Origin: Gracilariopsis chorda
Lineage: Eukaryota; Rhodophyta; Florideophyceae; Gracilariales; Gracilariaceae
DNA length: 64,000 nucleotides
Direction of reading: 5' to 3'
NCBI GenBank assembly: GCA_003194525.1
Contig: NBIV01000057.1
Location: 186,001 to 250,000 of the forward strand
In this document: in pieces, positions 9,631-28,671 of the stretch
Numbering within the stretch: position 1 is the first letter of the stretch
Layout of the letters: each line of letters opens with the position of its first letter
The notes under the pieces: generated by a model
The model's input: the letters and a program-made list of their open reading frames with translations, nothing else
The model's database searches: none
What the model was told of the DNA's origin: nothing
Made by a program: the position numbers and the translations under genes

Positions 9631-11107
9631 TAGCAGAAAGTACTATGTAATGTACAAGGTGAGTTGATGCCTTATTTGGCTACAACAATTATATACACAT
9701 TGTTGTATCGGACTATTCTATGCTTAGCTGTAGTAGATCACATGCACTTAGTACGTTCAAAACAACTCCGTACAGGTCAAACTGCTGGCAACTGAACACG
9801 TATCGTATTTATGTACTGCCCTTGTCCACCAAAGTCATACTACAACTGACTTTCCTTTAAAAGTTGTGCAGTTCAAGAAAATGGAATGGATGTATTCTTG
9901 TTGTAGTACGCACAGTACAAGTTGCTGATGGTGTGAATCAAGGTGTGCCAGTTCCCGTTCTGTCGCACAGACGCGAGCAGCTGGTCTCCTATAGTAGAGA
10001 AAGGCAGTGTCTAGAACAGTCTATCAGACACTATCCCGCCTGTAGCTTCTTGTCTTGAGCTCTCCCAGCGAGTGACCACCAGTACTTAAGATGTGTATTG
10101 TGGTAGAGGTATGAGCCACAAAATTATAAGCGTTCCTCCCTACAGAAAATTGATTCTCGTTAAACGCAGAAACGCCGGCCATGGATCGAGCGATTCAAAC
10201 AATATCGCTGCATTTAAGGAGCAGCTTATCTCGACCGTGCATCCCTTTTCTGACTCAGTGTAGCTGTCCAACGCTGAACTCAACATTTGAGAGCATAAAA
10301 ATCTGAAATGGAAACCTGAGAATCTGAAAAAGAGAATGGGATGAGGACGTAACGTGACATAGTTCTGTCTTCCAGAGCGACTGTTGAACCCGACGGGCTT
10401 ATTGATAGCTTTGATAACAGGACAAGAGTAATAGCAAATGTGAGCAGAGAAGGAAAACTATCACGTTATACTGGTCAATTGCTTTTTCTGGTAAGAGCTT
10501 CTTTTTATTCGATTGCCAGAAATCAAATATTGCGAAAAGACTACATTTTCAAGTTTTGCTCTGCCATATATGCAAACCATATTTGTCTTATGACCAGACG
10601 GCGTCGACATGAACATGCGTCGTTCTGAGCTGGTGACCGAGTAACGAGGTTTCTGGCCTATACGTTTGCAAGTGACAGTTTGCTACAGTTGTGCTATTGC
10701 GATGGAAAAGTGAGCGTTTCCTGAAAACACAAAAGAGCAAAACTGTTTCTTCGTCATCTCGCCTGCGAGAGATTTGTTCCACATTCTATTTAGCAGGAAC
10801 AAAGCTGAGGGTAGAAGAATCAGAAATCCTGGGCTTTCATGGAAATGCATCGAACCTCAAACTCAGGTATAGCCTTTTAAATCTGTGTACTTGCGGTTTC
10901 AGGAGACGCCCAGTGTCCCACATGCTGAAAACCCGTACTGAAGACATCTGGAAGGAGAAAGTACCTGTATTCAAACCGCAGACGCAAGGAGCAACGCTAT
11001 GGATGTCGCAGGGAAATGATGACGATCATCATTGTGAGCAGAGCAGTGAAGCTGAAGCGAAGCAAAAAGGTAAAATGTGCTGATGGTAGTACAATACTAG
11101 TCTAGGG
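9631..11107. other. Intergenic region, no gene recognised
   Basis: The longest frame is 130 codons at 10691-11083 +. It has no signal peptide or recognised motif and is probably chance, though a short spliced gene cannot be excluded. Confidence 0.35.
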
Positions 11108-11285
11108 AGACCAGTACAGAAGAATCTGGTCATTTAGGAGCCATCACAATCTGCGGTTGTGTTCAGAGGCTCTGATAGAGTAGTCAAAAAGTCGTGTCCA
11201 AATGTCACGTTTGGTTCATATCATGACATTTGGGCATGGGAAATATGTTCTTTTGGGGTTTCAAGACGCTCCTACTGTTATACGT
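11108..11285. repeat. Dispersed repeat family, copy 2
   Basis: Same orientation as the copy at 8400-8575. Similarity starts near AATCTGGTCATTTAGGAGCC and ends after AGACGCTCCTACTG. Flanks on both sides are unrelated, so the element's limits are close to these positions. No obvious target duplication was found. Confidence 0.7.
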
Positions 11286-12801
11286 GATCCTGTTACTATT
11301 GTTACAAAGGTAATCCACATCCTGACGGAGTGGGATCTGTGATAGTACAAAACAGGACGCTGTTTCTACCGGGTTTGGAACCATGTGTATGGTTGCAGTA
11401 CGGCTGAAAAATCCGTTCTAGGACAATGATGTGCTTCAGAGTTTCTGAAAATTACGTCTTTCTGAAAGATGTAAATGATAATTGAAGTACTGGCAGACAT
11501 GGTTGTGGCAGAAAAGTGTTACATCAAAAATCAATACTCAAAGCGATAGTTTCAAAGCGCAGATACTTTAACAACGCCACTTAGAAAACCGAAAAGCTCA
11601 TAGAAGACAAAAATATGACAAAGGCCTGAGCGCAACACCAGGAGCAAACTGAAGTGTGCTAGCAGTCGTACATACCGCAAATAGAACGAACGTTGAAACT
11701 GGCAACTGCTGTGGAATTATAGCTTGAGGTCAACTTTGAACGCAATCAACAGAGATTGCGGCAATCGAACGAGTCATGGTTGAGGTGAGAGGCTTGAACA
11801 GAGAGACTCGAAACTGGTTACACAGAAACCACTTCTACAAATGCATTTGCTGGGATATTCTCGAAAACATATTAGTATTAGCTAGAGAAAAGCATTACAA
11901 AGGGGACAATAAAGTCTAAAACTATATTTGACTGAGCAGAACAGATGCACGACTAGACTTTGCGGGTTACAATCAGTGGAGAAGTAGAGAAGGCCGAAAG
12001 AGCCCCGACAGAGCTATTAGACGGAGACCTACAAATGTATTTTTTTGCCAGCTTTGCGCTTGACGTAAGCATACAGGAAAGCAAGACAAGGTTTTTACGG
12101 TTTTAGTGTTCTAACTACGTTCAGTCATGAAGGCAAAGACGCTTCCGCATTCCACGCAGAAAACTATGTGAAAACCCGATGTTCATCAGTCAGAAGCGTT
12201 GTCATCATCACACGTCAGTGCCAAAATAGAGCAAAACACCGGCCGAGCATTCCCGTTAGCGCCGGCGCACTATTGGGAACATTACAGTTCAAATGTGAGC
12301 ACCCCGCTCTATCTGACCCTTACCAACCGTGGCAGTTGGCGATGTATGAACGTGTGAGTAAAATTGTCTTACGCGAAACTCCGACGCCTCACCGCTGCTG
12401 GTAACTGTACAACCGATAAAAGGACGATGATTGTGGTCCTCATTAATGCTCCTCCTCTGCTCGTTTCGAAATGCACTTCTTTCTGGGCTTCACATCCCGA
12501 GCTGCCATAAAACTTCCGAAGGCACCTGTACCTTTAAGGTACCGGCGGTAGGTTACCCCAGGGTAGCCTTCGACCCTTCGTATATCTGTTTGTGTTCCCT
12601 GTTGAACATGGACGCTTTTCATGCAGTGGCTGACACACAATCATTGCTTCCCGAAGCTGTGCAAACACTACCACAAATAGATGCTTGCGCCACGGTTAGC
12701 CATTCTTTCACGCGCCAATAGTCTGTGGTTTGCCTCCTCAGCCAACGCCAAGTTTCCATGTTCATCCTTAGGGTAACTCTCTATGCTATCACTCCGCGCC
12801 T
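11286..12801. other. Intergenic region, no gene recognised
   Basis: No gene is supported. At 12427-12505 there is DNA related to the small signal-peptide ORF at 6266, without a usable frame. The frame 12431-12721 + (96 codons) is unrecognised. Confidence 0.35.
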
Positions 12802-15952: not shown

Positions 15953-16781
15953 TGTGGTGCAATGCCCCAAAGGGGAAAAACACCGAAAGACGTTCGAGAT
16001 CTTCCTCTCACGAGGTGAACCCAGTTTAGTAGAGCCCTCCCAGAGGTGTCACGGCGAAGCCGGTTTGTAAGACCAGGGACACCTGTCGCGACTCGCGCAG
16101 GGAGGTGGAGGCGAAGAATCGGTATCCGCGTGAGCGGGGTGTGATCCTCAGTAGAGGTATGTTTCCACGTAAGTGGGGGTGTGTGAGCGGATGTGCACAC
16201 GAGGGCTGCGGATAGCGGGAGGTGCTACCCTAAAAAAAGGGGAAAAAGGAAGGGAGAAGAGGAGGAAGGAAGGACGAAGTGGGTCGCGAGAGCGACGAAC
16301 AGATACGGCAATGCCGGTGGACAGGACTCCCTATACAGGGCGAAACACCAATATGATTGGAACAATTATACTCCCAAGGATGGGCTTCTTTTGATGTGCA
16401 AGGGGGTCAGATGTCCCGTGGTTTACGGCGTTTCCCTCCAAGGAGGAGTAGAGTACGCGCGCAAGCGGCAACAACTAGAGCCAATTCCCCAGGTTGGGGT
16501 CCCTTGTTGGGGAAGGTTTACTGGTGCGACGGCAGTGCGCCGTCGCACTAAGTACTAGCTTCCCAGAAATGGGTGTGAAAATAATAAATAATATTAACTA
16601 AAATACTCCACATTTCGTGGCAACATCCACTACTGTGGCCAACCGCCAATTGACCCAAAACCGTGTCCCACGTGTCCATACCCACCATTGTGTGGCGTAG
16701 TTCATATACACACTACACAACCGATAATATCGGGAAAACGATCAAATACCTAGAATCCCTCTCTCAGGGCGTTGCACTTCA
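15953..16781 (-). mobile_element. Solo LTR of a Ty3/Gypsy chromovirus
   Basis: 829 bases beginning TGTGGTGCAATGCCCC and ending GTTGCACTTCA, flanked on both sides by the 5-base duplication GTTTC (15948-15952 and 16782-16786). It is clearly related to the LTRs of the element at 17157-28666 but differs at many positions, so it came from another, older insertion reduced by LTR-LTR recombination. Orientation is the same as that element. It sits in MULE-1. Confidence 0.93.
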
Positions 16782-16786
16782 GTTTC

Positions 16787-17156
16787 CAAGGTTTTCGAAG
16801 GTGTGTGACAGTCCTTCTGATATGCTTCTTGGGGATAATGCGGGCTTGTCCTTGCTCGCTTTCTCGTGGGCTCCAAGGAGCTTTTCTTTCTCCATTGTGC
16901 TTTGTGGCTTCCATTGTTTGGCGGACGGATCCCTGAGGAACTGAACTCTTTTGTAGAAGAAAATGGATGTAGTAAAGTGACAATGTTTTCTGTTTATTCA
17001 GCTTATTCTGTTCATGAAGCCAATCTTGTTCTGTAGGTACCTCTAACTTCGAAGTGTGTCTCTTTTGCTTGGTGAATGTCTGTGATGGCATCCCTTAAAA
17101 AACTTAGAACTTCACTCACGGCAACACATCCAATTCCAGTAGCTTGTCGATGTAAA
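16787..17156 (-). pseudogene. MULE-1 transposase C-terminal fragment left of the LTR element
   Basis: Read on the minus strand this 370-base piece continues the MULE-1 coding sequence that stops at the LTR insertion near 28672. The residues ATGIGCVAVSEVLSFLRDAI match the part of MULE-2 at 56582-57019 that reads ATDLVPIALRSIKIVLERSI. The chromovirus therefore landed in the C-terminal part of the MULE transposase ORF. Confidence 0.55.
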
Positions 17157-17963
17157 TGTGGTGCAATGCCCCAAAGGGGAAAAACACCGAAAGACGTCCG
17201 GGATCTTCCTCTCACGAGGTGAACCCAGTTGGGTAGAGCCCTCCCAGAGGTGTCACGGCGAAGCCGGTTTGTAAGACCAGGGACACCTGTCGCGACTCGC
17301 GCAGGGAGGTGAAGGCGAAGAATCGGTATCCGCGTGAGCGGGGTGTGATCCTCAGTAGAGGTATGTTTCCACGTAAGTGGGGGTGTGTGAGCGGATGCGC
17401 ACACGAGGGCCGCGGATAGCGGGAGGTGCTACCCTAAAAAGGGGAAAGAGGAAGGACGAGTGGGTCGCGAGAGCGACGAGTAGATACGGCAATGCCGGTG
17501 GACAGGACTCCCTATACAGGGCGAAACACCAATATGATTGGAACAATTAGTACTCCCAATGATGGGTCTCCTTTAGATGTGCAAGGGGGGTGAACTTCCG
17601 TACACTACGGTGCTTCCCTCCAAGGAGGAGTTGAGAACACGCGGAGGCGGTAAAGCTCAGACCCAATTCCCCAGGTTGGGGTCCCTTGTTGGGGAAGGTT
17701 TACTGGTGCGACGGCAGTGCGCCGTCGCACTAATTACTAGCTTCCCAGAAATGGGTGTGAAAATAATAAATAAAATTAACTAAAATACTCCACATTCCGT
17801 GGCAACATCCACTACTGTGGCCAACCGCCAATTGACCCAAAACCGTGTCCCACGTGTCCATACCCACCATTGTGGGGCGTAGTTCATATACACACTACAC
17901 AACCGATAATATCGGGAAAGCGTTCAAGTACCTAGAATCCCTCCCTGAGGGCGTTGCACTTCA
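17157..17963 (-). repeat. 3' LTR of the chromovirus
   Basis: Runs TG to CA, 807 bases, nearly identical to 27859-28666. It contains many small stem-loops such as GTCGCGAGAGCGAC, CCGTACACTACGG and CGACGGCAGTGCGCCGTCG. Confidence 0.95.
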
Positions 17964-17978
17964 TATCCCCCCCCTTAA
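17964..17978 (-). other. Polypurine tract of the chromovirus
   Basis: Read on the minus strand, AAGGGGGGGGATA lies directly before the 3' LTR, the position and composition expected of the plus-strand primer of LTR elements. It confirms the minus orientation. Confidence 0.8.
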
Positions 17979-18020
17979 GACGGGAAAACGACCGCGGGCG
18001 CGGAGGATTCCCAGACGAAA

Positions 18021-18911
18021 ATGGGTGATAAAAGCGCGTGCTTTGTCTCCGGTTCTCCGGTAAATCCCTCTGCACCAGAGTCATCAAGCACACAAACGAC
18101 AACAACAGCCACCCTCCAAAAGGGACAAAGGAACGACGACAACCATATCAACAGCCACAGCCAACCGCCGAGACTTCTCGGGCGGTACACCACCGGTTTC
18201 CGGTCAGTTCCCCTGCCTCAGGGCGATCGAAATCCGGTACAACCGGGGAATATGGCTGCTGCAGCCGACCATCCCTTCGCACTACCACCTTCGGTGGTGT
18301 CCTCCGGAACCACTCCGGTGTCCAACTGGCCAGCCTACAACACCCTGGTGGGGCTCAACCCGATGAATCGGAATCACGCGTCGCGCCTGCGCCTTGCCCC
18401 GTGGTTTCACCCGGTCGCTGTCCTCAATGAGGGGTTGGTCACCGCTTATGCGGATGGTTCAGACACCCTTCCGGGGGATCTGCCCAGAGCAGTCACCACA
18501 TCGTGGGATTGGCGTCACCGGATTGCGATTCCGCGTCACCACCTCCGAAGAAACTCGGGCGAGACCGTCGCTGCGGCGCAGACCGCGTTGACGCGGATGG
18601 CGTACCAACGGCAGAGCCGGGCTCCATTCGATGTACCGGTCCCACCGGAGTTGGCTTCGACGTTAGCTACTTCCGCACTCGCGGGGAGATTGGGTACGGC
18701 GAGAACCTGTTCCGCCTCGAGACCCTCGCTTGGAGGAATTTCCCCGCAGCGCGGCAAGAGGCCCTTTGCTGGGAGCGACCGATTATTCGGGCGGAGTTCA
18801 GGTACCTTCCCCGGCAATACCGGTCCAACTTTCTCCAAAACTTCATCCGCTACGAGCGGCGTTGGCGATCCCGATTCGGGTACTTTATCCCGTATCAGAA
18901 CGTGGAGATAG
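18021..18911 (+). CDS. Antisense open frame of the chromovirus, first of two overlapping
   Basis: 296 codons on the strand opposite to gag-pol, starting MGDKSACFVSG. The first half is rich in Ser, Thr, Pro and Gln; the middle contains proline- and tryptophan-rich stretches. It overlaps another frame that begins at 18503. No homology is recognised. It may be an accessory gene of the element. Confidence 0.4.
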   Translation: MGDKSACFVSGSPVNPSAPESSSTQTTTTATLQKGQRNDDNHINSHSQPPRLLGRYTTGFRSVPLPQGDRNPVQPGNMAAAADHPFALPPSVVSSGTTPVSNWPAYNTLVGLNPMNRNHASRLRLAPWFHPVAVLNEGLVTAYADGSDTLPGDLPRAVTTSWDWRHRIAIPRHHLRRNSGETVAAAQTALTRMAYQRQSRAPFDVPVPPELASTLATSALAGRLGTARTCSASRPSLGGISPQRGKRPFAGSDRLFGRSSGTFPGNTGPTFSKTSSATSGVGDPDSGTLSRIRTWR

Positions 18912-19807
18912 AGCGGATTGCGCCGCCTCACCGACTAGGTCGGTATGTAGCACTCCCCGAGTGGTGGCGCTTCCATGAAGCCTGCCGGGGGTGCTACATA
19001 GAACTCCCGCCGGTACTTACGTACCTCGGTTCGCTGCTCATGCAGGATCCCCGGTCGGGGTTGTGGTCCGTAGTGGTTACGGAGTGGGCGGCCCGCAGTG
19101 CGGCTTATATCCTCAACGAGGCGTACGACCAGTATCGTCTCTGGTTCCTTCAACCGCGTGTGCGGGCAGCGATCCGAAACCTGGATCTTCGCATCCCCCT
19201 TGGGGGCCAGGCCAACAATGAAGAGGTCCTCCAATTACTTGGGTACATCGACAGCGTTAGCTGGAGTGAGGTCCCGCTGGAGCAAAGCGGTCGTCTGGAT
19301 GGCGGCAGCGGTAACACCGGTGGTCCGGGACTCGGTAGAAACACCGCCCTTGCGGGGGATTTTATCTACTTCGACCCCTGGGAGTTCCGGGAAATTTCCT
19401 CCGAGGAGGCGCGAGAGCTTCGCGATACGCCCCGGCATGTGCCGGAAGACCACCCGGTGGGGTACGTCGATTCTGACGACTACTACCGCGCATACGGCGG
19501 GGATGACCCAATGGTCGATAACGAACCGGAAGAACCCGGGGAGATGGACGTAGAGGAAACCGGCGCTAGCGCGGAAGCTTTCCCAGAGGGGGTATCTCCG
19601 GCCGAGCCGGCTGCTGACCCTTCAACGGCAAGTGCCGGACCTTCTATCCCCAGCGGGGTGACGGCGAATGAAAACGAAATCATCGCACGTTTCCTCCGGG
19701 GTGCCGGTCTTAGCGCTGCCGAGGTATCGGGGGATGTCACCACCATGGCGGACGCGTTGGCCTACCGCCTTGCTGGGGGTTACGCCCCGGACGATGGGGG
19801 TGAGTGA
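18503..19807 (+). CDS. Antisense accessory ORF of the chromovirus (434 codons)
   Basis: A long open frame opposite to pol, placed between the chromodomain region and the 3' LTR. The middle of the product is rich in aromatic and basic residues (for example RYERRWRSRFGYFIPYQN) and the C-terminal third is acidic (EPEEPGEMDVEET). The amino-acid composition looks like a real protein rather than a complement shadow. Antisense ORFs between pol and the 3' LTR are known from several plant Ty3/Gypsy lineages. Function is not recognised. The frame carries the same dense micro-palindromes as the rest of the element. Confidence 0.55.
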   Translation: MGLASPDCDSASPPPKKLGRDRRCGADRVDADGVPTAEPGSIRCTGPTGVGFDVSYFRTRGEIGYGENLFRLETLAWRNFPAARQEALCWERPIIRAEFRYLPRQYRSNFLQNFIRYERRWRSRFGYFIPYQNVEIERIAPPHRLGRYVALPEWWRFHEACRGCYIELPPVLTYLGSLLMQDPRSGLWSVVVTEWAARSAAYILNEAYDQYRLWFLQPRVRAAIRNLDLRIPLGGQANNEEVLQLLGYIDSVSWSEVPLEQSGRLDGGSGNTGGPGLGRNTALAGDFIYFDPWEFREISSEEARELRDTPRHVPEDHPVGYVDSDDYYRAYGGDDPMVDNEPEEPGEMDVEETGASAEAFPEGVSPAEPAADPSTASAGPSIPSGVTANENEIIARFLRGAGLSAAEVSGDVTTMADALAYRLAGGYAPDDGGE

Positions 19808-19998
19808 AACCTCTAGTCCAGTTTCCTGGTTCTTCTTTCCCTGGCTATGCCAGTTAGTGTAGTGTAGTATTGTGGGGAGCTAGCTGCTCCCTTGAATAAA
19901 CTTTCCCGTTTAGAACGGTGCTTCTCGGTTGAGTTCCCCGTCTTCGACGGACCTTGTCTTGTTATCCTTTCCTTTCGCTCTCCGCTCGCACGGCAACG

Positions 19999-22002
19999 TT
20001 ACCCAACTTGGGCATTTACCAGCGTGGCTGGAGCTGCAGTTCCCGTTTGACGGTGGTATCGCACGACCTGCGACCGTGGGAGGTGTTCCATTGGCTCCCA
20101 CGTATCCCCACTGGGGTCGTACCCGTACCAGCGGACGCGGTATTGTAGAATACCATCCTGGTCCCAGGTGTGTCCGACAAGTCGGTCTACTACGAACTCT
20201 CGTTCGTAGACCTGCCGGCCGTGCCGGGTGGTGGTTGTAATCCCTGGCGAGGGTTGCCCGCGGTGTGGTATAATGTCCCTTAGCAGGGTGTTCGGCGATA
20301 ACTCCGACGTTGCCGTGCGCTGTCCTAGTGGCCGCTGCTCATGCGGGAAAATATCCCTCAAGAGGGTGTGTGGTGCCACGGTTTTCACCGGCAAGTCGTT
20401 CCCCAGAGGGGTGTCGTTGTTTCCGTCTTCACGGTAGGCCGGGCGAACCGCCAGTCGGCGGGGGACTTGGGTTCCGCCTTCGCGGTTGAGCGCACGAACC
20501 GCGAGTTTGCGGGAAGATGACCGCTCCTGCGGGATCGGCATTTCCACAATCCCCTGGGGGGTCCCGTGCGACACGGTGATTGGGTGGCAAACCGCCTCCC
20601 TGCCAGGCGCACGAGCGCTCTGCACCATACGTTCCGGCGATGCCGTGGTGTCCCCGGCTACTGACGGGTTGCCTGGGGCTAACTCCGGTACACCGGTATT
20701 TTGGTCAAAATTCCCCTCTGGGGGGTTCCGGGCAGGTGCCGATGACACCCTTTTCAGGGGAATTGCCGCTGAGCGCAGTGCACCATCTCCGTGAGGAGGA
20801 GCAGCGTCCGGTACGACCGGTTTCGAGCGTGCGATGGCGCGCGTTATTCCCGAGTTCCTCGGTTCTTCGCCGCAGCGATGCGGGGGTCGGCGCAAATTAT
20901 TCCCCGTAGCGGGGGCTTTGATTCCGTCAACGACGGGAGGCGTTTCCGGTGCTTGCGAGCCAGGGCTTAAAGCTTCGATTGCAGCTTGGCCGCCTTTTTC
21001 CCCAAGAGGGGTGTGGGTATTCCCCTGTGAGGCCGGCGTATCTGGGCGCCCCTTCTCCGCAGGGCGCGGGTCTGATCGACCTGATTGAACCGCTTCCGCG
21101 GGGACTTCCGCCAACGGCGGCTTCGAGGCATCGGGCGATTGCCTTTCCGCTGCTGCGGTATTGGAGTGAGGCTTCTCGTTTTCCCGTGACAAACGGTGTA
21201 TTTGCCGCTTTTGCGGGGCCTGCGCGTCTGGTTCCTGTTGCACAGCACTGCTCGGGAACGGGGGATTAGTGTCGCGTGACATACTCCGTGCTCCACGGTC
21301 AGTGTTCCGTATGTTACGGTGTGTTTCCCGTTGCGACGGTGATATCGTTCCTCGAAAACGAGTGTTCTCCTCCCCCTCCTTAGACGGAGCGGCGGGATAA
21401 GGGATAACATTCCCCGCCTGGCGGGTATAGATGCGCGCCAGTGGGGCAGACGTGGTAGGGGCGGGCGCTGAGGGGCCCGAATTACCCGGCTGAGCCGGTG
21501 AGTCCGACAGAGTCGGTAGGTCTGAGAGTCCCCGGCTGGGGTGTGGTAGTACCGTAGGTCTAGTACTCCCGGATTGTTCCGGTGTAGCGGAGTCCGTAGA
21601 AACGGGGTTGCCTGGATCCAGGACTACCTCTGACGAGGGAGGAGGGGCGAGGACAACACGATCACGGGAAATCCGTTCGTGCGTGTCCCCCATCTCTACC
21701 ACGACAGTGTCGGTGTTAACAGAGATCACCTTGAAGGGTCCATCCGCCACAGGCGAGAGTTTGTGACGCTTCTCCCGTTCCGGGTTGTAGTATTCCTTCC
21801 TGATGAAGACGTAGTTATTTGCCCGAATCGGGGATGGTTTTCCTCGCACGCGAGCGTCAAAATCCCGCTTGTAAGCGGCTTGGGCCCGTGCCATAGACTT
21901 CCGCGCAGCGGGGACCAGCTTGGAAAGCCATCGCTTCCATTGCTGCCGGTAGATACCCACAGATGGGAAATTGTCCAAGGTAGCTTGGGGTTCCAGCGCC
22001 AC
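19999..22002 (-). CDS. Chromovirus pol C-terminal region with chromodomain
   Basis: This part of the element carries the end of the integrase region (a GPFKV-type stretch near its start), a long Pro/Ser/Arg-rich linker and, near its end, a chromodomain (YRVRWYGYDPSGDTWEPMEH), which in this clade guides integration to modified chromatin. The linker is unusually long, about 400 residues. Confidence 0.8.
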   Translation of the reverse strand: MALEPQATLDNFPSVGIYRQQWKRWLSKLVPAARKSMARAQAAYKRDFDARVRGKPSPIRANNYVFIRKEYYNPEREKRHKLSPVADGPFKVISVNTDTVVVEMGDTHERISRDRVVLAPPPSSEVVLDPGNPVSTDSATPEQSGSTRPTVLPHPSRGLSDLPTLSDSPAQPGNSGPSAPAPTTSAPLARIYTRQAGNVIPYPAAPSKEGEENTRFRGTISPSQRETHRNIRNTDRGARSMSRDTNPPFPSSAVQQEPDAQAPQKRQIHRLSRENEKPHSNTAAAERQSPDASKPPLAEVPAEAVQSGRSDPRPAEKGRPDTPASQGNTHTPLGEKGGQAAIEALSPGSQAPETPPVVDGIKAPATGNNLRRPPHRCGEEPRNSGITRAIARSKPVVPDAAPPHGDGALRSAAIPLKRVSSAPARNPPEGNFDQNTGVPELAPGNPSVAGDTTASPERMVQSARAPGREAVCHPITVSHGTPQGIVEMPIPQERSSSRKLAVRALNREGGTQVPRRLAVRPAYREDGNNDTPLGNDLPVKTVAPHTLLRDIFPHEQRPLGQRTATSELSPNTLLRDIIPHRGQPSPGITTTTRHGRQVYEREFVVDRLVGHTWDQDGILQYRVRWYGYDPSGDTWEPMEHLPRSQVVRYHRQTGTAAPATLVNAQVG

Positions 22003-22015
22003 AGGCGGGGGTGTT

Positions 22016-25000
22016 CTAGATAGAACTAACTCGAATGGCGAAAGCTCCGGTAGTCCGGTGTACCTGCGTATTGTACGCGTAGGTTACCGCATCAGCGTAG
22101 AGATCCCAATTCGTTGGGTGGTCAGCGACGTAGGAACGTAACGCCGCGAGTAACGTCCGGTTAAACCGTTCAACTTGCCCATTACACTGGGGGTGGTAGG
22201 TAGTCGTGAACAAGTTCTTGACATCCAGGATGCGACAAACATCCTGGAAGAACTTGCTCACGAACTGCTTCCCGTTGTCAGAGAGCACCTCTACAGGGGG
22301 ACCGTAGACAAAAATCCAGTGCGTCACCAGAGCCTGGGCCACCGTGAGAGCGGTTATCCTCCGAAGAGGGACAGTCCGTACCAGCTTAGAAAAGCGGTCG
22401 GTAATGACAAGTAGAAACTTGTTTCCACGTTTCGTGGTGAGTAATGGTCCGAGAATATCGATCGCGATAAACTCGAGCGGCGCCCTTGCGGGGAATAGTT
22501 TCATCTTCTTCGCATTTTTGCGGAGTTTGACGCGATCCTTCGCGCATTCGCTACAAAACCGCACAGTTGCGTAGCAATCCACCGCCATTGCGGGCCAATA
22601 GAAATCCCTTCGCAGGGTTAGGTAGAGTTTCCTCCCACCTGGGTGACCTCCAATGGGGGCGTAGTGTGATAGATGTAACACCCGCGATTGCAGGGAATGT
22701 GGTACCACAATCTGTGGGCGGGCTTCGACCTTTCTTACGAGGTAGCCTTTGTCGTTTACCCCGAAAGGGAGATCTTCACCACCGTTGATACGGGCACGAA
22801 TTCTCGTACAGAATGGGTCGCCGAATTGTTCTCGGATCATTTCTTCCGGTGATACCGGTACAAAGTTTCCCGGTAACGGGTTCTCAGATTTATCTCGCGA
22901 TGCGAGTAGTTCGTCAAAATCAGCATCCTCGTCCCAGGTTTCTGGCCTAGCCTCGACGGCATGTTCCGGATCATCCGGGTCTATAGCCATGAAGCATGGG
23001 ACTTCATCATCCTCCGTTGGGAGTGCTTCCCCACTTGTGGGTAACCGCGATAAAGCGTCGGCCTGAGTGTTCTGCGCACCCTTTTTATAAATGACTTGAA
23101 AGTCATATTCCGCGAGGCGGAGTCTCCAGCGCATGAGGCGTCCCGACGGGTCGGAGATATTCATCAACCACCTCAATGAGGAATGATCCGTGTACACGGT
23201 GAAGTGAATTCCCATAAGGTAGGGGCGCAGAGTGGTCATCGCCCATACGACGGCGAGGCACTCTTTCTCCGATACGGAGTAGTTCCGCTCATGAACATTG
23301 AGCGAACGTGACCAATAACCAATTGGATGTCGTTCCCCCTCGGGGGTGGTTTGAAAAAGAGCACACCCGACTTGGTAGTCGCTCGAGTCCGTATCTACGG
23401 AGTATGGCAACCCAAGTTTTGGGAGATGTAGGATTGGTGCTGATGTGACAGCCTCCTTTAAGGAGTTAAAAGCTTCCGATTGCTCGGGCGTAAATGTTCC
23501 CAGTTTTGGGGGGTTCCCCTTTCGCAACAACGCGTTCAGGGGCGCTGCAGTATCCGAAAAGTTCGGGATAAACCGTCGATAGACGTTGACCAGCCCCAGA
23601 AAGGAGCGCAGTTCCGTTTGAGTACGGGGTTCTTTCGCCTCAACGAGGGATTTGACTCGAGCTTTCTCGATCGCTAACCGTCCAGGACGGATAATGTGAC
23701 CCAGATACTTCACAGTATCTGTGAAAAACTCGCATTTCCTCAACTTGAGGGTAATTCCCGCATCGCGGAGTACGGTCAGCACGTCTCGGACGTGAGTGAG
23801 ATGGTCGTCCAACGAGTTGGAGAAGATGATAATATCATCAAGGTAGACCAGACAACTCCGCCACTTAAAGCGGTTGAGTAGAATATCTACTGCACGCTGA
23901 AAGGTGGCGGGGGCGTTGGTTAACCCAAATGGCATCCGCTTGAAGCGGTACGTTCCTGCATGGCAGGTGAATGCGGTTTTGTCGCGATCCTCCTGTCTGA
24001 CAGGTACTTGCCAATATCCCCAATTGGCATCAAGGGCCGTGAACACGGTGGCGTCTCCAAGGGAGTCAATGCACTCGTCCATACGAGGGATGGGGTACGT
24101 GTCCCTAACAGTCACGGCATTGAGCCGGCGGTAGTCGACACAGAACCTCCAGGTTCCGTCAGCCTTTAAAGCCAGTACAACTGGGGATGCCCAGGGCGAT
24201 TGAGCGGGCTCAATCACACCTGCGCGGAGCATCTTGTCCACCTGGGACTGCTCCTCTTCCCGAGCTTTCGGACCTGCCCTGTAAGGGGGTTGTGCAACCG
24301 GTCGCGCACCGGGGATTAAATCGATCCGGTGTTCCGTTGCATCAATCTCGCCAAGCGAGCCATCCCACATTGTGGTGAATTCCCGTAACATAGTACGGAG
24401 TTTGTCGCGGTGCGACTCTGGCACGTGGCTGAAGTCCAGCGCTTCAAGTGCTTTTTCCGGATCAATCCGGTCATTGCTCGATGGAGCATTGTCCTGTGGA
24501 ACAGGTGTGGTTCGCAATTCCGAGTTACTCGGTATGTTCGACGCTGAAGTAGCGGTTTCCTCCCCCTCCTTAGACTTGACGTCTTCGGACGGCGGGGTGA
24601 ACTCCTCAGAAGAGGTGGTAACTCCGAGTACATCGGCGGCTGTCATCTTCGTTGGCAGCATTCCCATAGGATGGGGGGTTACACTCCCAATTACTTGGTG
24701 TTTGACCAGATACTGGGGGTGTTTGCCAAGGTTGGCAACCAATATCCGGAAAGGAACATCCGGGGAAATGGAGACAATTCCATTAGCCAGCGCCAGCTGG
24801 GATTTCTCGTACAACGAGGCGAGGGGTTGTATAACCCGAAGACCGTGTTGACGGGAATTTACCTGTACCCAGACTTGGGACTCAGCCGGTATAGAAACCG
24901 AGGCAGCGACGCGGAGCTTGGTGGACTCGCGGGACGCGGGCGGTGGTTCCTGCGCAGCAGGGAGCGGAACTTGTTTCCGAGAGGACCGCTTTAGCGGGCG

Positions 25001-25561
25001 GCGAACAATCGGAACCGACGATCCGTCGTCAAGTTCTACACGCCTGAGGCGGGGCCTGATTGCGTCGACAAATCTGTCGCAGTAATCACATCCCAGTATG
25101 ACTGGTGCTGCCAGTGAACGGCAAACGATGAAGTCCAACTTCACCACAGATGTACCAAGTCTCACGACGAGGTCCACTGTGCCCACCGTTTGTAACGGAT
25201 TGTTGTTCGCATCCGAAATGTCGGGGACCGCGTCAGAGCGGATACGCGACCGCACAAGCGGGGGTAACAATGATTCCACGACAAAGTTGGGGCCTGCACC
25301 TGTATCCAGGACGGTGAGAAACCTCACCATAAACTGGGGGTCAAGGCCAAGGTCGGCATAGACCTTATAATTGCGCTTGGCCAAGACCAAGACTCTACCG
25401 GGAATCCGGGGATTTTTACTCCGTATCCACGGGCGACGCAACACACCGAGGTGCGCAGAGTCCGCGTCAGCGGTGTCTTTCCTCGAGAGGACTTTCACCG
25501 GGGAGCGAGGCGAGGACGCCTCGGGCGCCAACAGCCTCGTTTTTGAGGACGCCTCTCCCAA
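22016..25561 (-). CDS. Chromovirus pol: protease, reverse transcriptase, RNase H, integrase
   Basis: About 1180 residues. In order: an aspartic protease (DTGAG), reverse transcriptase with the YLDD box, RNase H, and integrase with an N-terminal HHCC zinc domain and a DDE core (DNGKQF and HPQCNGQVERFN). Domain order protease-RT-RNaseH-integrase is that of Ty3/Gypsy. Expression in this family is usually by frameshift or read-through from gag. Confidence 0.93.
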   Translation of the reverse strand: MGEASSKTRLLAPEASSPRSPVKVLSRKDTADADSAHLGVLRRPWIRSKNPRIPGRVLVLAKRNYKVYADLGLDPQFMVRFLTVLDTGAGPNFVVESLLPPLVRSRIRSDAVPDISDANNNPLQTVGTVDLVVRLGTSVVKLDFIVCRSLAAPVILGCDYCDRFVDAIRPRLRRVELDDGSSVPIVRRPLKRSSRKQVPLPAAQEPPPASRESTKLRVAASVSIPAESQVWVQVNSRQHGLRVIQPLASLYEKSQLALANGIVSISPDVPFRILVANLGKHPQYLVKHQVIGSVTPHPMGMLPTKMTAADVLGVTTSSEEFTPPSEDVKSKEGEETATSASNIPSNSELRTTPVPQDNAPSSNDRIDPEKALEALDFSHVPESHRDKLRTMLREFTTMWDGSLGEIDATEHRIDLIPGARPVAQPPYRAGPKAREEEQSQVDKMLRAGVIEPAQSPWASPVVLALKADGTWRFCVDYRRLNAVTVRDTYPIPRMDECIDSLGDATVFTALDANWGYWQVPVRQEDRDKTAFTCHAGTYRFKRMPFGLTNAPATFQRAVDILLNRFKWRSCLVYLDDIIIFSNSLDDHLTHVRDVLTVLRDAGITLKLRKCEFFTDTVKYLGHIIRPGRLAIEKARVKSLVEAKEPRTQTELRSFLGLVNVYRRFIPNFSDTAAPLNALLRKGNPPKLGTFTPEQSEAFNSLKEAVTSAPILHLPKLGLPYSVDTDSSDYQVGCALFQTTPEGERHPIGYWSRSLNVHERNYSVSEKECLAVVWAMTTLRPYLMGIHFTVYTDHSSLRWLMNISDPSGRLMRWRLRLAEYDFQVIYKKGAQNTQADALSRLPTSGEALPTEDDEVPCFMAIDPDDPEHAVEARPETWDEDADFDELLASRDKSENPLPGNFVPVSPEEMIREQFGDPFCTRIRARINGGEDLPFGVNDKGYLVRKVEARPQIVVPHSLQSRVLHLSHYAPIGGHPGGRKLYLTLRRDFYWPAMAVDCYATVRFCSECAKDRVKLRKNAKKMKLFPARAPLEFIAIDILGPLLTTKRGNKFLLVITDRFSKLVRTVPLRRITALTVAQALVTHWIFVYGPPVEVLSDNGKQFVSKFFQDVCRILDVKNLFTTTYHPQCNGQVERFNRTLLAALRSYVADHPTNWDLYADAVTYAYNTQVHRTTGAFAIRVSSI

Positions 25562-25578
25562 AGGGGAGACTCCCTCAG

Positions 25579-27753
25579 TTAGTTTTCCGCCTTCGGCGGT
25601 GGGTTGGTTTCCTCGACAACGAGTGCTTCATCCCGTTGACGGGGGTTTCTATCCGCATAAGCGGGGGTTGCAACGGATGGTTGCGTGATCTCCCGAATCG
25701 GGGTGTATGAAGCTTGCCGCGCACGCGGGGTCTGTGGTAGGGCGTGAGAAAAGTCCGTTTTAGCACGGAGGTAGGAAGCCGTCGGGACGGAACGTTTCTC
25801 CTCTGGAGTGAGGGCCTCATAATTTGCCACCACCTTGGCCATATCCTTCAGTGAACAAATACACTGAGGAGAGGTATGGCCATGGGCATAGCACAGGTGG
25901 CAAATGAGAGCCAGCACCGCGACACGCGGATTATTATTCCGAGTATCGGAGAAGCGAACCGCAGGGCGGGTGTCAGTCCATCCAGGCCGTTGATAACGGG
26001 ATTGACCGTTTGAAAACGGGAGTCGTTGGGGTTGAACCCGACTGTTACCACCGTATAGAACGGGATCTTCTGTTCCCGTATCATGGGTCATCTCCGTCGT
26101 TGACGGTAACTCACTGGTGGGTATCGACACACCATCCCCCTGCGCTAAATGCACGGTATCAAATCCCTGTCCAGGGTTCCCATCCGCGGTGAGCGGGAGA
26201 GAGGAAGCTTCGCTTTCCAGCAACAACGCCTTGGCGGATTTAGACCGATTGTTCGGAGTTCTTGCACGAAGTGCATCCCCTTCCGCTCGAGCGTGTTGGA
26301 CCAGCTCGAGGTAGGTGATCCTTCGCTTGTCCTCCCGATAACGGGTAACTAAACTCCGGATTGCCGGGTCAAGACCATCAATGAACATGGTACTGCGCTC
26401 CCCAGCGGGGTATACGTTACCACATCTGTGGAAAGCCTTGTTAAGGCGCACCGAGTAATCGGTCTCGGTCTCTCCAGCACGCTGGCGTGTATCTCGCAAA
26501 GCGAGGATAGCCTGCTGAATAGCGGTGTTGGTGGCGTAGGAGCGCAGAAGATACTGCACAGCCTCCGGCCAGCAAGTAACTCCTCCCTCGGAGGCGCGAG
26601 AAGATCCTCGGACAGAGGTGTATTGGTCCTCGGCCACTCCCCGTAAGAAATACGGTAAAGCCAAATAGGCTTGTCCCTCATTCATACCGAGGATATCGGC
26701 CTCCGCTACAAAGCGGGATAGGAAATCCAGTACTAGGACTGGGTCCTCTCCAGTAAAATACTGGTTGCGGAGCGAGAGCTGCATTCGCTTAATGCATTCT
26801 CGCACCTTTCCCGTACCACGGGGCGTACGTCCAAGTGACGAATCTTCAAGCCGGTAGTACCGGTATGATAAAAGCTTCCGGTAATCCGGGTTTGTCGGTT
26901 TCAATTCCCGGAGACCGGGGTGTCTTCTCCCCTTCTGGCGGGTTCGGACCACACCTTCAGTGGCCGATGACCGCTTCGAGCGGGAGGAGTAGCCTCGCTT
27001 CTCGTCCTCCGAGTCGGAGTCCGAGGAGCTCGAGCTAACCGAATGGTTTCGGGATGAGTCCGACGATGTCGAAGAATCGGAGTCCGAATATTTTCGGTGG
27101 TGTTTCCGTCGGTGACGGCGTTTCTTCTTCCCAGCAACCTGGTCGTTGTGCGATGCCTCGTTTACCGGATCACCCGGGGATGGTTTGTCCATGAGGACGA
27201 ACTGCTCCAGCGTCTCCAGGCGGGCACCAATCCGATCAAATCGGGCTTCAACTCCTTCGATGAAGGCGGCGGGTTGTCCCAAACTCTCCAACACGGAGTT
27301 GACGTCAGACCGTAAAATACGGAGTTCCTCGGCGACCTCCTCTACGGGGGTTGCCGAGACCACCTCTTGGAGGGATTTTAGTTCCCCTACAAGGGTGTCA
27401 TGGGCGGTCCACAGAGCGCGGACCTGGGATTCCAGGGAAGTCCCCTGGGGGGTGTTATCGCCCGTTCCACGGGGGCTTGAAGCCGCGACAGCGGGAGCAG
27501 GCCGGGGTGCCTGGGGCACTGCGGCAACAGCCGGAGTCGATGCTGCATTCCCCTGCGGGGGTGATAACGAGGGCAAAAGGAGGTTCCGGGGTTCCCGGTC
27601 GGGGGTATCATTCCGCGATGAAGCGGCGCCAGCACGGCTGGAACTTGTCCGTATAGGGATACGGGGTACGAACCGAACTTCGGAAGTGTCCGCGTTGTCG
27701 CGGGAGCGACTACGCGTAACCACTGGCTCCGCGTCGGAGGGATTTCTCGACAT
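25579..27753 (-). CDS. Chromovirus gag
   Basis: 724 residues starting MSRNPSDAEPVV. There is a low-complexity N-terminal third, a serine/aspartate- and arginine-rich stretch, a retrotransposon gag domain in the middle (around FLSRFVAEAD to SYATNTAIQQ), and one CCHC zinc knuckle (CHLCYAHGHTSPQC) about 100 residues from the end. It is the first gene after the 5' LTR. Confidence 0.9.
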   Translation of the reverse strand: MSRNPSDAEPVVTRSRSRDNADTSEVRFVPRIPIRTSSSRAGAASSRNDTPDREPRNLLLPSLSPPQGNAASTPAVAAVPQAPRPAPAVAASSPRGTGDNTPQGTSLESQVRALWTAHDTLVGELKSLQEVVSATPVEEVAEELRILRSDVNSVLESLGQPAAFIEGVEARFDRIGARLETLEQFVLMDKPSPGDPVNEASHNDQVAGKKKRRHRRKHHRKYSDSDSSTSSDSSRNHSVSSSSSDSDSEDEKRGYSSRSKRSSATEGVVRTRQKGRRHPGLRELKPTNPDYRKLLSYRYYRLEDSSLGRTPRGTGKVRECIKRMQLSLRNQYFTGEDPVLVLDFLSRFVAEADILGMNEGQAYLALPYFLRGVAEDQYTSVRGSSRASEGGVTCWPEAVQYLLRSYATNTAIQQAILALRDTRQRAGETETDYSVRLNKAFHRCGNVYPAGERSTMFIDGLDPAIRSLVTRYREDKRRITYLELVQHARAEGDALRARTPNNRSKSAKALLLESEASSLPLTADGNPGQGFDTVHLAQGDGVSIPTSELPSTTEMTHDTGTEDPVLYGGNSRVQPQRLPFSNGQSRYQRPGWTDTRPAVRFSDTRNNNPRVAVLALICHLCYAHGHTSPQCICSLKDMAKVVANYEALTPEEKRSVPTASYLRAKTDFSHALPQTPRARQASYTPIREITQPSVATPAYADRNPRQRDEALVVEETNPPPKAEN

Positions 27754-27840
27754 GAGAAAATACCGTTACGACGGGAAACGATCACGGAACTTCCGGTGAA
27801 TGAAAACAAACCTCGTAAGAGGGAAAACAAAAACCGATTC

Positions 27841-27855
27841 TAGGTCGGGAGACCA
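27841..27855 (-). other. Primer-binding site of the chromovirus
   Basis: Three bases inside the 5' LTR, the minus strand reads TGGTCTCCCGACCTA, which starts with TGG as expected for pairing with the CCA end of a tRNA. The tRNA species cannot be named without the host's tRNA set. Confidence 0.6.
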
Positions 27856-27858
27856 CTT

Positions 27859-28666
27859 TGTGGTGCAATGCCCCAAAGGGGAAAAACACCGAAAGAACGT
27901 CCGGGATCTTCCTCTCACGAGGTGAACCCAGTTGGGTAGAGCCCTCCCAGAGGTGTCACGGCGAAGCCGGTTTGTAAGACCAGGGACACCTGTCGCGACT
28001 CGCGCAGGGAGGTGAAGGCGAAGAATCGGTATCCGCGTGAGCGGGGTGTGATCCTCAGTAGAGGTATGTTTCCACGTAAGTGGGGGTGTGTGAGCGGATG
28101 CGCACACGAGGGCCGCGGATAGCGGGAGGTGCTACCCTAAAAAGGGGAAAGAGGAAGGACGAGTGGGTCGCGAGAGCGACGAGTAGATACGGCAATGCCG
28201 GTGGACAGGACTCCCTATACAGGGCGAAACACCAATATGATTGGAACAATTAGTACTCCCAATGATGGGTCTCCTTTAGATGTGCAAGGGGGGTGAACTT
28301 CCGTACACTACGGTGCTTCCCTCCAAGGAGGAGTTGAGAACACGCGGAGGCGGTAAAGCTCAGACCCAATTCCCCAGGTTGGGGTCCCTTGTTGGGGAAG
28401 GTTTACTGGTGCGACGGCAGTGCGCCGTCGCACTAAGTACTAGCTTCCCAGAAATGGGTGTGAAAATAATAAATAAAATTAACTAAAATACTCCACATTC
28501 CGTGGCAACATCCACTACTGTGGCCAACCGCCAATTGACCCAAAACCGTGTCCCACGTGTCCATACCCACCATTGTGGGGCGTAGTTCATATACACACTA
28601 CACAACCGATAATATCGGGAAAGCGTTCAAGTACCTAGAATCCCTCCCTGAGGGCGTTGCACTTCA
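27859..28666 (-). repeat. 5' LTR of the chromovirus
   Basis: 808 bases, TG to CA, nearly identical to 17157-17963. The outer flank is GTAAA at 28667-28671. Confidence 0.95.
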
Positions 28667-28671
28667 GTAAA

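What the first reader, a model, noticed from the sequence alone, without database searches (positions are those of the whole stretch)
17157..28666. A retrotransposon tiled along its whole length with small, non-identical hairpins
Across LTRs, gag, pol and the antisense ORF the sequence is a near-continuous series of hyphenated palindromes with 4-6 bp stems and 2-6 base loops. In 25587-25728 they start at 25587 (CCGCCTTCGGCGG), 25612 (CTCGACAACGAG), 25632 (CCCGTTGACGGG), 25653 (CCGCATAAGCGG), 25671 (CAACGGATGGTTG), 25692 (CCCGAATCGGG) and 25717 (CCGCGCACGCGG), a spacing of 18-25 bases. In pol near 22400-22640: ACAAGTAGAAACTTGT, CCACGTTTCGTGG, CGCATTTTTGCG, CCGCCATTGCGG, CCCTTCGCAGGG. Sequences differ, so this is not a dispersed motif such as HIP1 or mitochondrial GC clusters. 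I do not see it in the host genes or DNA transposons of this window. Selection for a structured RNA genome, or a replication error that makes palindromes, could explain it; I know of no described case.
Basis: seen in the sequence. Interest (0 to 1): 0.92.

Follow-up and report, generated by a model that had tools for sequence, protein, structure and literature searches.

The report
Retrotransposon tiled with tiny RNA hairpins
A jumping element in a red-algal genome carries, along its whole length and through its genes, hundreds of small perfect hairpins about 20 letters apart; evolution keeps their paired letters more constant than the letters between them, so the element's RNA seems to be built as a regular string of beads.

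Summary
In 17157-28666, a Ty3/chromodomain LTR element of a red alga, short hairpins are 2.6-fold (stem >=4) to 3.9-fold (stem >=5) above dinucleotide shuffles and above every codon-preserving shuffle of all three ORFs. They share one form: stem 4-5 bp, loop 3-4, span 12-13 nt, CC at the 5' base and GG at the 3' base, almost strictly Watson-Crick, followed by A on the RNA-sense strand, with a period near 20.5 nt. The rest of the window, the sampled Copia loci and most sampled Ty3 families of the same genome lack them; a second family about 55% identical in pol has them, with other letters and the same span. New mutations hit stems about as often as linkers, yet differences between lineages avoid stems (LTR: 1 of 226 stem, 24 of 485 linker sites). 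So selection keeps the array; a copying error does not explain it. Best reading: the genomic RNA is a periodic array of minimal hairpins; I infer, unproven, that each unit serves one Gag (yeast Ty3 packages about 20 nt per Gag). RNAi evasion is the main rival. Against: no compensatory excess between families, no clear G-U tolerance.

The parts
17157..28666 (-). whole LTR element carrying the hairpin array
   Evidence: 5-bp repeat GTAAA on both sides (17152-17156 and 28667-28671) and LTRs with TG...CA ends, read in the output; hairpin density falls to background outside it and its neighbouring LTR
27859..28666 (-). 5' LTR (RNA sense)
17157..17963 (-). 3' LTR
27843..27855 (-). probable primer binding site TGGTCTCCCGACC
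   Evidence: begins TGG 3 nt after the LTR (read in the output; assignment from general knowledge)
17967..17976 (-). probable polypurine tract AAGGGGGGGG
   Evidence: 3 nt before the 3' LTR (read in the output)
25579..27753 (-). gag ORF, 724 aa
   Evidence: 73 hairpins against 23.5 in synonymous shuffles; no Pfam family
25861..25902 (-). CCHC zinc knuckle of Gag (CHLCYAHGHTSPQC)
   Evidence: pattern C-x2-C-x4-H-x4-C at residues 618-631
22016..25561 (-). pol ORF: reverse transcriptase, RNase H, integrase
   Evidence: Pfam RVT_1, RT_RNaseH, Integrase_H2C2, rve; 122 hairpins against 34.1
19999..22002 (-). 3' pol ORF (pol3) with a chromodomain at 20071-20196
   Evidence: Pfam Chromo, residues 603-644; 68 hairpins against 22.9
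18503..19807 (+). antisense ORF, 434 aa, with homologues in Gracilariopsis chorda and Gracilaria domingensis
   Evidence: no Pfam family
15953..16780 (-). separate LTR of the B subgroup, also hairpin-rich
   Evidence: 19 hairpins in the 500 nt from 16001 against 4.9 expected

Best explanation
The genomic RNA of this group of red-algal Ty3 elements is kept by natural selection as a regular array of minimal hairpins: about 12-13 nt, 4-5 Watson-Crick pairs, 3-4 nt loop, about every 20.5 nt where occupied, running through LTRs and genes alike. Shown by comparison of sequences: the excess, the fixed size and spacing, the CC...GG ends, the strand-specific 3' A, and the scarcity of stem changes between lineages although mutations do hit stems. 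Inferred: the array works as single-stranded RNA. Inferred further: each unit is a binding or spacing site for one Gag molecule (capsid plus CCHC nucleocapsid), so that packaging and condensation of the RNA are written along its whole length; the stem-end letters, CC...GG here and not in the second family, would fit each family's own Gag.
For: Excess over dinucleotide and synonymous shuffles. Size: stem 5/loop 3 76 vs 6.9 expected, stem 6/loop 3 only 6 vs 2.2; just outside stem-4/loop-4 hairpins an A-A mismatch is the most enriched pair, 37 vs 2.6 (other mismatches there 0.5- to 6-fold). CC-N8-GG with the two inner pairs Watson-Crick 105 vs 6.5; CC-N9-GG with three inner pairs 67 vs 1.6. Period 20.5 nt over the whole element; clear on its own in gag (21.25), pol (20.5), the C117 copy (20.75) and the L054 family (22.75). 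A follows CC hairpins on the sense strand: gag 25 of 47 (T before it: 7), p 0.002; pol 25 of 55 (9), p 0.009; pol3 26 of 47 (3), p 1.5e-5 (pol3 is itself A-rich over T). Stems diverge least: window vs C117 stem 50/2527, linker 257/6184, loop 44/969, while decoy hairpins with loops of 8-22 show no consistent effect; also among G/C sites alone (p 4e-5). Window pol3 vs L096: stem 1/164, loop 4/67, linker 73/602; on the well-aligned 730 nt 1/146, 4/60, 28/481. Mutations do arise in stems. The trait follows relatedness to the window pol. CC hairpins are individually stable, median -5.4 kcal/mol for 232. [quoted passage not shown] Gag here has a CCHC knuckle.
Against: No direct evidence that Gag binds these hairpins; particle size and RNA copies are unknown, so the 20-nt match may be coincidence. 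No loop motif. G-U pairs are not clearly tolerated better than A-C: near-hairpins of stem 4/loop 4 GT 86 vs 86.1 expected, AC 113 vs 100.5; inside CC-N8-GG 6 vs 5.9 and 12 vs 7.0, inside CC-N9-GG 8 vs 2.1 and 5 vs 2.2; one-sided stem changes 20 GT, 19 AC. Between the two families most hairpins have moved: 9 of 147 comparable window hairpins wholly intact, and doubly changed pairs are complementary no more often than decoys (102/268 vs 84/226). RNA folding z is modest (mean -1.07 per 120 nt; 128 of 315 hairpins appear in minimum-energy folds of 400 nt). In the 1.5-kb pol piece the lineage difference is only weakly low in stems (3/424 vs 11/925). In four pol copies within-family variation was also low in stems (3/913 vs 22/2088). 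Annotated from L096 the pol3 comparison shows no stem deficit (20/196 vs 48/559), which I put down to a block that hardly aligns. Periods of LTR, pol3 and the antisense-ORF region alone (20, 20.25, 17.5; scores 2.4, 1.9, 2.5) do not exceed one shuffled control (2.9), and in the whole-element plot the fourth and fifth peaks are off the lattice (88, 106). The A signal is not significant in the LTR (p 0.06) or the antisense-ORF region (p 0.12) and absent from 129 hairpins without CC.
Confidence: 0.42

Rival explanations
1. The array protects the element from RNA interference: guides of 21-22 nt and their targets overlap a hairpin, so guide loading or target pairing is hindered on both strands.
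For: The host has two full-length Piwi-domain matches without stops. Chondrus small RNAs are mainly 22 and 21 nt (PMC4872230, passages), close to the 20.5-nt period. Mean folding energy of 21-mers is -3.15 sense and -3.41 antisense against -2.17 and -2.32 shuffled. Lack of clear G-U tolerance fits a need on both strands.
Against: The sampled Copia loci and most sampled Ty3 families of the same host, several of them numerous, have no such hairpins. It does not explain the CC...GG ends, the strand-specific A or the limit on stem length.
Confidence: 0.2
2. Dense local folding keeps sense and antisense transcripts (the element has an antisense ORF) from annealing into long double-stranded RNA, as proposed for single-stranded RNA phage genomes (recalled).
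For: Near-perfect Watson-Crick hairpins fold alike on both strands; antisense ORF with homologues.
Against: A copy lacking most of the antisense-ORF region keeps the array (C81, L087); uniform size and period are not predicted.
Confidence: 0.12
3. The selected molecule is DNA (single-stranded cDNA during reverse transcription, or helical phasing at about two turns), for instance to pause or protect the copying complex.
For: Near-strict Watson-Crick pairing and a period near 21 bp.
Against: Stems of 4-5 bp are too short for stable extrusion in duplex DNA (general knowledge); inner pairs vary freely, unlike a protein dyad site; flanks are asymmetric on the RNA-sense strand.
Confidence: 0.1
4. 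A mutational process (fold-back template switching by the reverse transcriptase) keeps making perfect hairpins; no function.
For: Near-perfect pairing, any inner sequence, small loops.
Against: Little excess of one-mismatch relics for stem 4/loop 4 (1.0- to 1.3-fold against 3.9 for perfect ones); new mutations are spread evenly and fixed LTR differences avoid stems; other reverse-transcribing families sampled in the host lack it.
Confidence: 0.04
5. Chance, GC content, codon usage or overlapping reading frames.
For: The element is GC-richer than its surroundings (0.57 against 0.44-0.46).
Against: Dinucleotide and synonymous shuffles; the LTR carries it too.
Confidence: 0.005

Closest known systems
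Genome-scale ordered RNA structure (GORS) of some RNA viruses (recalled; only a listing seen)
   Same: Folding energy below shuffled controls along the RNA, through coding sequence
   Different: Here the structure is a periodic series of 12-13-nt hairpins of one size with CC...GG ends; the relative excess is strongest at 14-21 nt and fades with length; the element is an LTR retrotransposon
Multiple dispersed packaging signals of single-stranded RNA viruses (PMC6281560, passages)
   Same: Many stem-loops spread over the genome, proposed to contact capsid protein during assembly
   Different: Here 347 hairpins in 10.7 kb (about 111 expected by chance), a fixed period and no shared loop motif; no binding shown
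Yeast Ty3 genomic RNA (PMC11381356, abstract, passages and section 29)
   Same: Ty3-group element whose RNA genome is packaged into Gag particles
   Different: Yeast Ty3 RNA is described there as a mosaic of stable and dynamic regions and about 36% adenosine; the words 'periodic' and 'hairpins' do not occur in that text
Escape from RNA interference through RNA structure (recalled; listings only)
   Same: Local structure could block guide RNAs
   Different: The cases I recall are single target sites, not a whole element
HIP1 and mitochondrial GC clusters
   Same: Frequent short palindromes
   Different: Those repeat one sequence; here inner sequences differ while the shape is constant

Membership tests
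Ty3/gypsy LTR retrotransposon with chromodomain | paired LTRs, target site duplication, PBS and PPT | tested here: met
   (duplication, PBS and PPT by inspection of its output)
Ty3/gypsy LTR retrotransposon with chromodomain | RT-RNase H-integrase order and a C-terminal chromodomain | tested here: met
GORS | lower folding energy than order-scrambled controls along the genome | tested here: met
   mean z -1.07 sense in 48 windows; host stretch -0.31 and 0.09 on its two strands
GORS | found in replicating single-stranded RNA viruses (recalled) | tested here: not met
   the element is an LTR retrotransposon
Dispersed packaging signals | multiple stem-loops over the genome | tested here: met
   347 non-overlapping hairpins in 10703 nt against 111 in shuffles
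Dispersed packaging signals | shared recognition motif in the loop | tested here: not met
   no loop consensus; the shared letters are at the stem base
Dispersed packaging signals | binding to the element's capsid protein | not testable with these tools
   needs a binding or cross-linking assay
Conserved RNA secondary structure in the usual sense | compensatory changes at paired sites | tested here: not met
   no excess between the two families (102/268 vs decoy 84/226); isolated examples only
Quasi-palindrome (template-switch) mutation | new changes create or perfect hairpins, or spare stems | tested here: not met
   singletons hit stems freely; fixed LTR differences avoid them. Creation of hairpins by single events was not scored
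RNA-interference escape | host RNA interference exists | tested here: inconclusive
   two full-length Piwi-domain matches without stops; the search for RNA-dependent RNA polymerase did not complete; Dicer not searched
HIP1-like dispersed motif | one repeated sequence | tested here: not met

The most novel reading that the evidence does not exclude
A retroelement group whose RNA genome carries a built-in, family-specific ruler: a hairpin about every 20.5 nt, one per Gag molecule, by which the capsid protein counts, packs and recognises its own RNA along its whole length, over and through the genetic code.
Probability: 0.3. Interest if true: 0.95.

Novelty: categorically new. Interest (0 to 1): 0.87.

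Why it matters
A second, whole-length code laid over protein-coding genes, strong enough to hold paired bases more constant than the bases between them in a fast-evolving part of the protein, did not turn up for any retrotransposon in my searches (open-access papers, listings only). If the Gag reading is right, it offers a natural system for a long-standing question: how Gag picks and packs one RNA among thousands. The array predicts a stoichiometry and can be tested on short RNA fragments in vitro.

Tried and rejected
Chance, GC content, codon usage: rejected. Dispersed identical motif: rejected. Protein-binding dyads in duplex DNA: disfavoured because inner pairs vary freely but stay complementary. 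Conserved fold with covariation: looked for between the window family and the L054 family; exact hairpin centres coincide more than by chance (7 vs 0.7; within 1 nt 11 vs 3.5, where the highest of 224 shifts was also 11), partly perhaps through protein conservation, but there is no compensatory excess, so I describe turnover under a constant density. Maximally stable RNA: not supported. Non-homologous, non-autonomous derivatives as a test of packaging: the two short copies I fetched (C3, C81) are deletion forms of the same family, so uninformative. DNA relatives in viral contigs: none confirmed.

Rows dropped or limited: the LTR half was wrong (some copies in the wrong orientation) and was redone; its pol half stands. 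In one search only the first 2500 nt of L051 and L055 were used, because they end in LTR pieces. One search printed at most six loci per cluster. Cluster L011-L028 holds 18 of the 20 Copia loci, so Copia was sampled in three clusters only. No tree of the elements was built.

Full report
Identity. The element spans 17157-28666: GTAAA on both sides, LTRs of 807-808 bp with 2 mismatches, TG...CA ends, a probable PBS and PPT. gag, pol and a third ORF lie on the minus strand; pol has RT, RNase H and integrase, and the third ORF has a chromodomain near its end. Among the 120 pol homologues listed, the one with an organism name is from Agarophyton chilense (P0042), and the antisense ORF has homologues in Gracilariopsis chorda and Gracilaria domingensis, so the host is probably a red alga near Gracilariales (inference).

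Is it real? Stem >=4, loop 2-6: 47.4/kb against 18.3 shuffled, z 23; the two flanks 19.3 and 20.1 against 18.2 and 18.7, with a slight surplus of longer stems on the right (stem >=7 ratio 1.95). Synonymous shuffles of the three ORFs never come near (z 10.3-17.3 for stem >=4, 6.3-17 for stem >=5; 500 each), nor do shuffles that also keep junction dinucleotides (z 10.2-16.6 for stem >=4; 100 each). 44 of 44 windows of 500 nt in the element exceed z 2.2, against 13 of 201 outside. Non-overlapping hairpins (stem >=4, loop 3-5) cover 41.5% of the element against 13.3% in shuffles.

Anatomy. The favoured forms are stem 5/loop 3 (76 vs 6.9) and stem 4/loop 4 (106 vs 27.4); loops of 7 or more are near background and triloop stems mostly stop at 5 (stem 6: 6 vs 2.2). 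Of 140 stem-4/loop-4 hairpins 84% start with C and 78% have C second; of 90 stem-5/loop-3 hairpins 87% and 80%; loops have no consensus. For CC-N8-GG, sites with both inner pairs complementary number 105 against 6.5; for CC-N9-GG with three inner pairs 67 against 1.6; single G-T or T-G mismatches are 6 vs 5.9 and 8 vs 2.1, single A-C or C-A 12 vs 7.0 and 5 vs 2.2. Outside stem-4/loop-4 hairpins A-A is the most enriched pair (37 vs 2.6), and the base after the hairpin on the sense strand is A in 57% of 164 CC hairpins, a bias not seen after 129 hairpins without CC. Centre distances of 232 CC hairpins peak near 20, 42, 63, 88, 106, 122, 141, 162 and 181 nt; the best period is 20.5 (score 6.6; uniform placement at most 2.9 in 300 trials; shuffling the gaps gives 4.9, sd 0.8, at most 7.1 in 500), so most of the order comes from nearest-neighbour spacing. 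By part the best period and score are LTR 20.0 (2.4), gag 21.25 (4.6), pol 20.5 (4.5), pol3 20.25 (1.9), antisense-ORF region 17.5 (2.5), C117 copy 20.75 (5.5), L054 family 22.75 (4.8); one shuffled element reached 2.9, so only gag, pol, C117 and L054 stand out alone. Hairpin starts show no common reading-frame phase.

Where else? The 20 Copia loci, three clusters, show no clear excess (stem >=5 ratios 0.32-1.41). The 30 loci of the RNase H search fall in 10 Ty3 clusters besides the window family; one (L054) is rich throughout (2.97-fold for five stem/loop classes), L045, L057 and L058 are slightly raised (1.2-1.4), and L051 and L055 carry CC hairpins at one end: in L055 a diverged LTR of this family (88% identical), in L051 probably the same, judged by its hairpins. 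Of ten further chromodomain loci L096 and L097 (same lineage), L093 (64% identical over 98 residues; 29 vs 13.1) and L090 (26 vs 12.8, 10 with CC; origin not followed) are rich and six are not (ratios 0.69-1.25). In the L054 family the dense region runs from about 56.1 to 61.6 kb within the 55.6-65.4 kb of contig C291 that I fetched; its gag piece is 36% identical and its pol pieces 35-67% (55.6% over the longest, 631 residues); its hairpins are mostly stem 4/loop 4-5 without CC ends. So the trait follows relatedness, and span and spacing outlast the letters; no tree was built.

Selection or mutation? Against the copy C117 stems differ at 50/2527 (2.0%), linkers 257/6184 (4.2%), loops 44/969 (4.5%); annotated from C117, 32/2368, 274/6417 and 45/895; decoy hairpins with loops 8-22 are between 2.8 and 4.1% in their stems; the effect holds for G/C and A/T sites apart. 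In pol3, window against L096, hairpins of stem >=5 or with CC: stem 1/164, loop 4/67, linker 73/602; all hairpins: 4/221, 8/90, 66/522; annotated from L096 20/196 stem against 48/559 linker, because a block hardly aligns; on the well-aligned 730 nt 1/146, 4/60, 28/481. In LTRs, 8 copies of group A and 8 of group B vary within groups evenly (linker 54/485, stem 24/226, loop 8/92), but fixed differences are 24, 1 and 4; with B as reference 66/549, 15/180, 5/74 within and 28, 0 and 1 fixed (Fisher p 0.006 and 0.011). In a 1.5-kb pol piece of 14 copies singletons are linker 33/925, stem 21/424, loop 8/152, while differences from C117 are 11, 3 and 3. One result points the other way: four pol copies over 3.3 kb varied at linker 22/2088, stem 3/913, loop 4/343. 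Together: mutation does not spare stems; selection on the active lineage does.

Which molecule and what for? The strand-specific A and the transcript-wide extent favour RNA; the lack of clear G-U tolerance favours either a very strict requirement or both strands. Short pieces fold far better than shuffles (14 nt z -31, 21 nt z -20, 80 nt z -10, against 8 shuffles), long folds only modestly. For yeast Ty3, 540 capsid proteins and two 5.2-kb RNAs give about 20 bases per Gag (PMC6525542, passages). The present RNA would be about 10.7 kb (inference), i.e. about 520 units of 20.5 nt; 347 hairpins are seen against 111 by chance, so the lattice is partly filled. I take a Gag-binding array as most likely, at 0.42, mainly because the trait is confined to one group of elements in a host where the other retroelements sampled do without it. 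RNA-interference evasion remains open: small RNAs of Chondrus are mostly 21-22 nt (PMC4872230, passages) and this host has two full-length Piwi-domain matches without stops.

Novelty. Searches of open-access papers listed no retrotransposon of this kind by title or abstract start; of four papers I saw an abstract, passages or one section. I call it categorically new because it meets none of the tested definitions fully; if Gag binding is proved, it would become an extreme form of dispersed packaging signals.

Noticed in passing
G000 contigs C483, C648, C777, C944, C626, C882, C317, C345, C785, C143, C48, C995: 44 further, shorter Piwi-domain matches, many with stops, lie on these contigs, often in plus/minus pairs a few hundred bases apart and on some contigs at about 8-kb steps: a multicopy repeat that may carry an inverted repeat of an Argonaute gene and could make hairpin RNA against it.
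   Followed up: no
window 22003-22016: 21 of 39 listed pol places show an open frame of 1875 aa; the window copy shows 1203, its pol being split into ORFs of 1181 and 667 aa.
   Followed up: no
window 18503-19807: Antisense ORF with homologues in two other Gracilariales; one copy (C81, L087) lacks most of this region.
   Followed up: partly
L096 (G000:C19:63700-64899): Copy with an integrase piece 97% but the 3' pol ORF only 75% identical to the window, including a block that hardly aligns and has hairpins of its own.
   Followed up: partly
L011-L028 (one Copia cluster): These Copia loci have fewer stem >=5, loop 3-4 hairpins than shuffles (ratios 0.32-1.03, mostly under 0.8).
   Followed up: no
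G000:C383:36202-50459: Six Copia reverse transcriptase matches repeat head to tail about every 2.7 kb, apparently a tandem array.
   Followed up: no
window 11001-12000 and 43501-44000: Local hairpin surplus outside the element without CC ends (14 vs 4.8 stem >=5 in the first; z 3.2 and 3.6).
   Followed up: no
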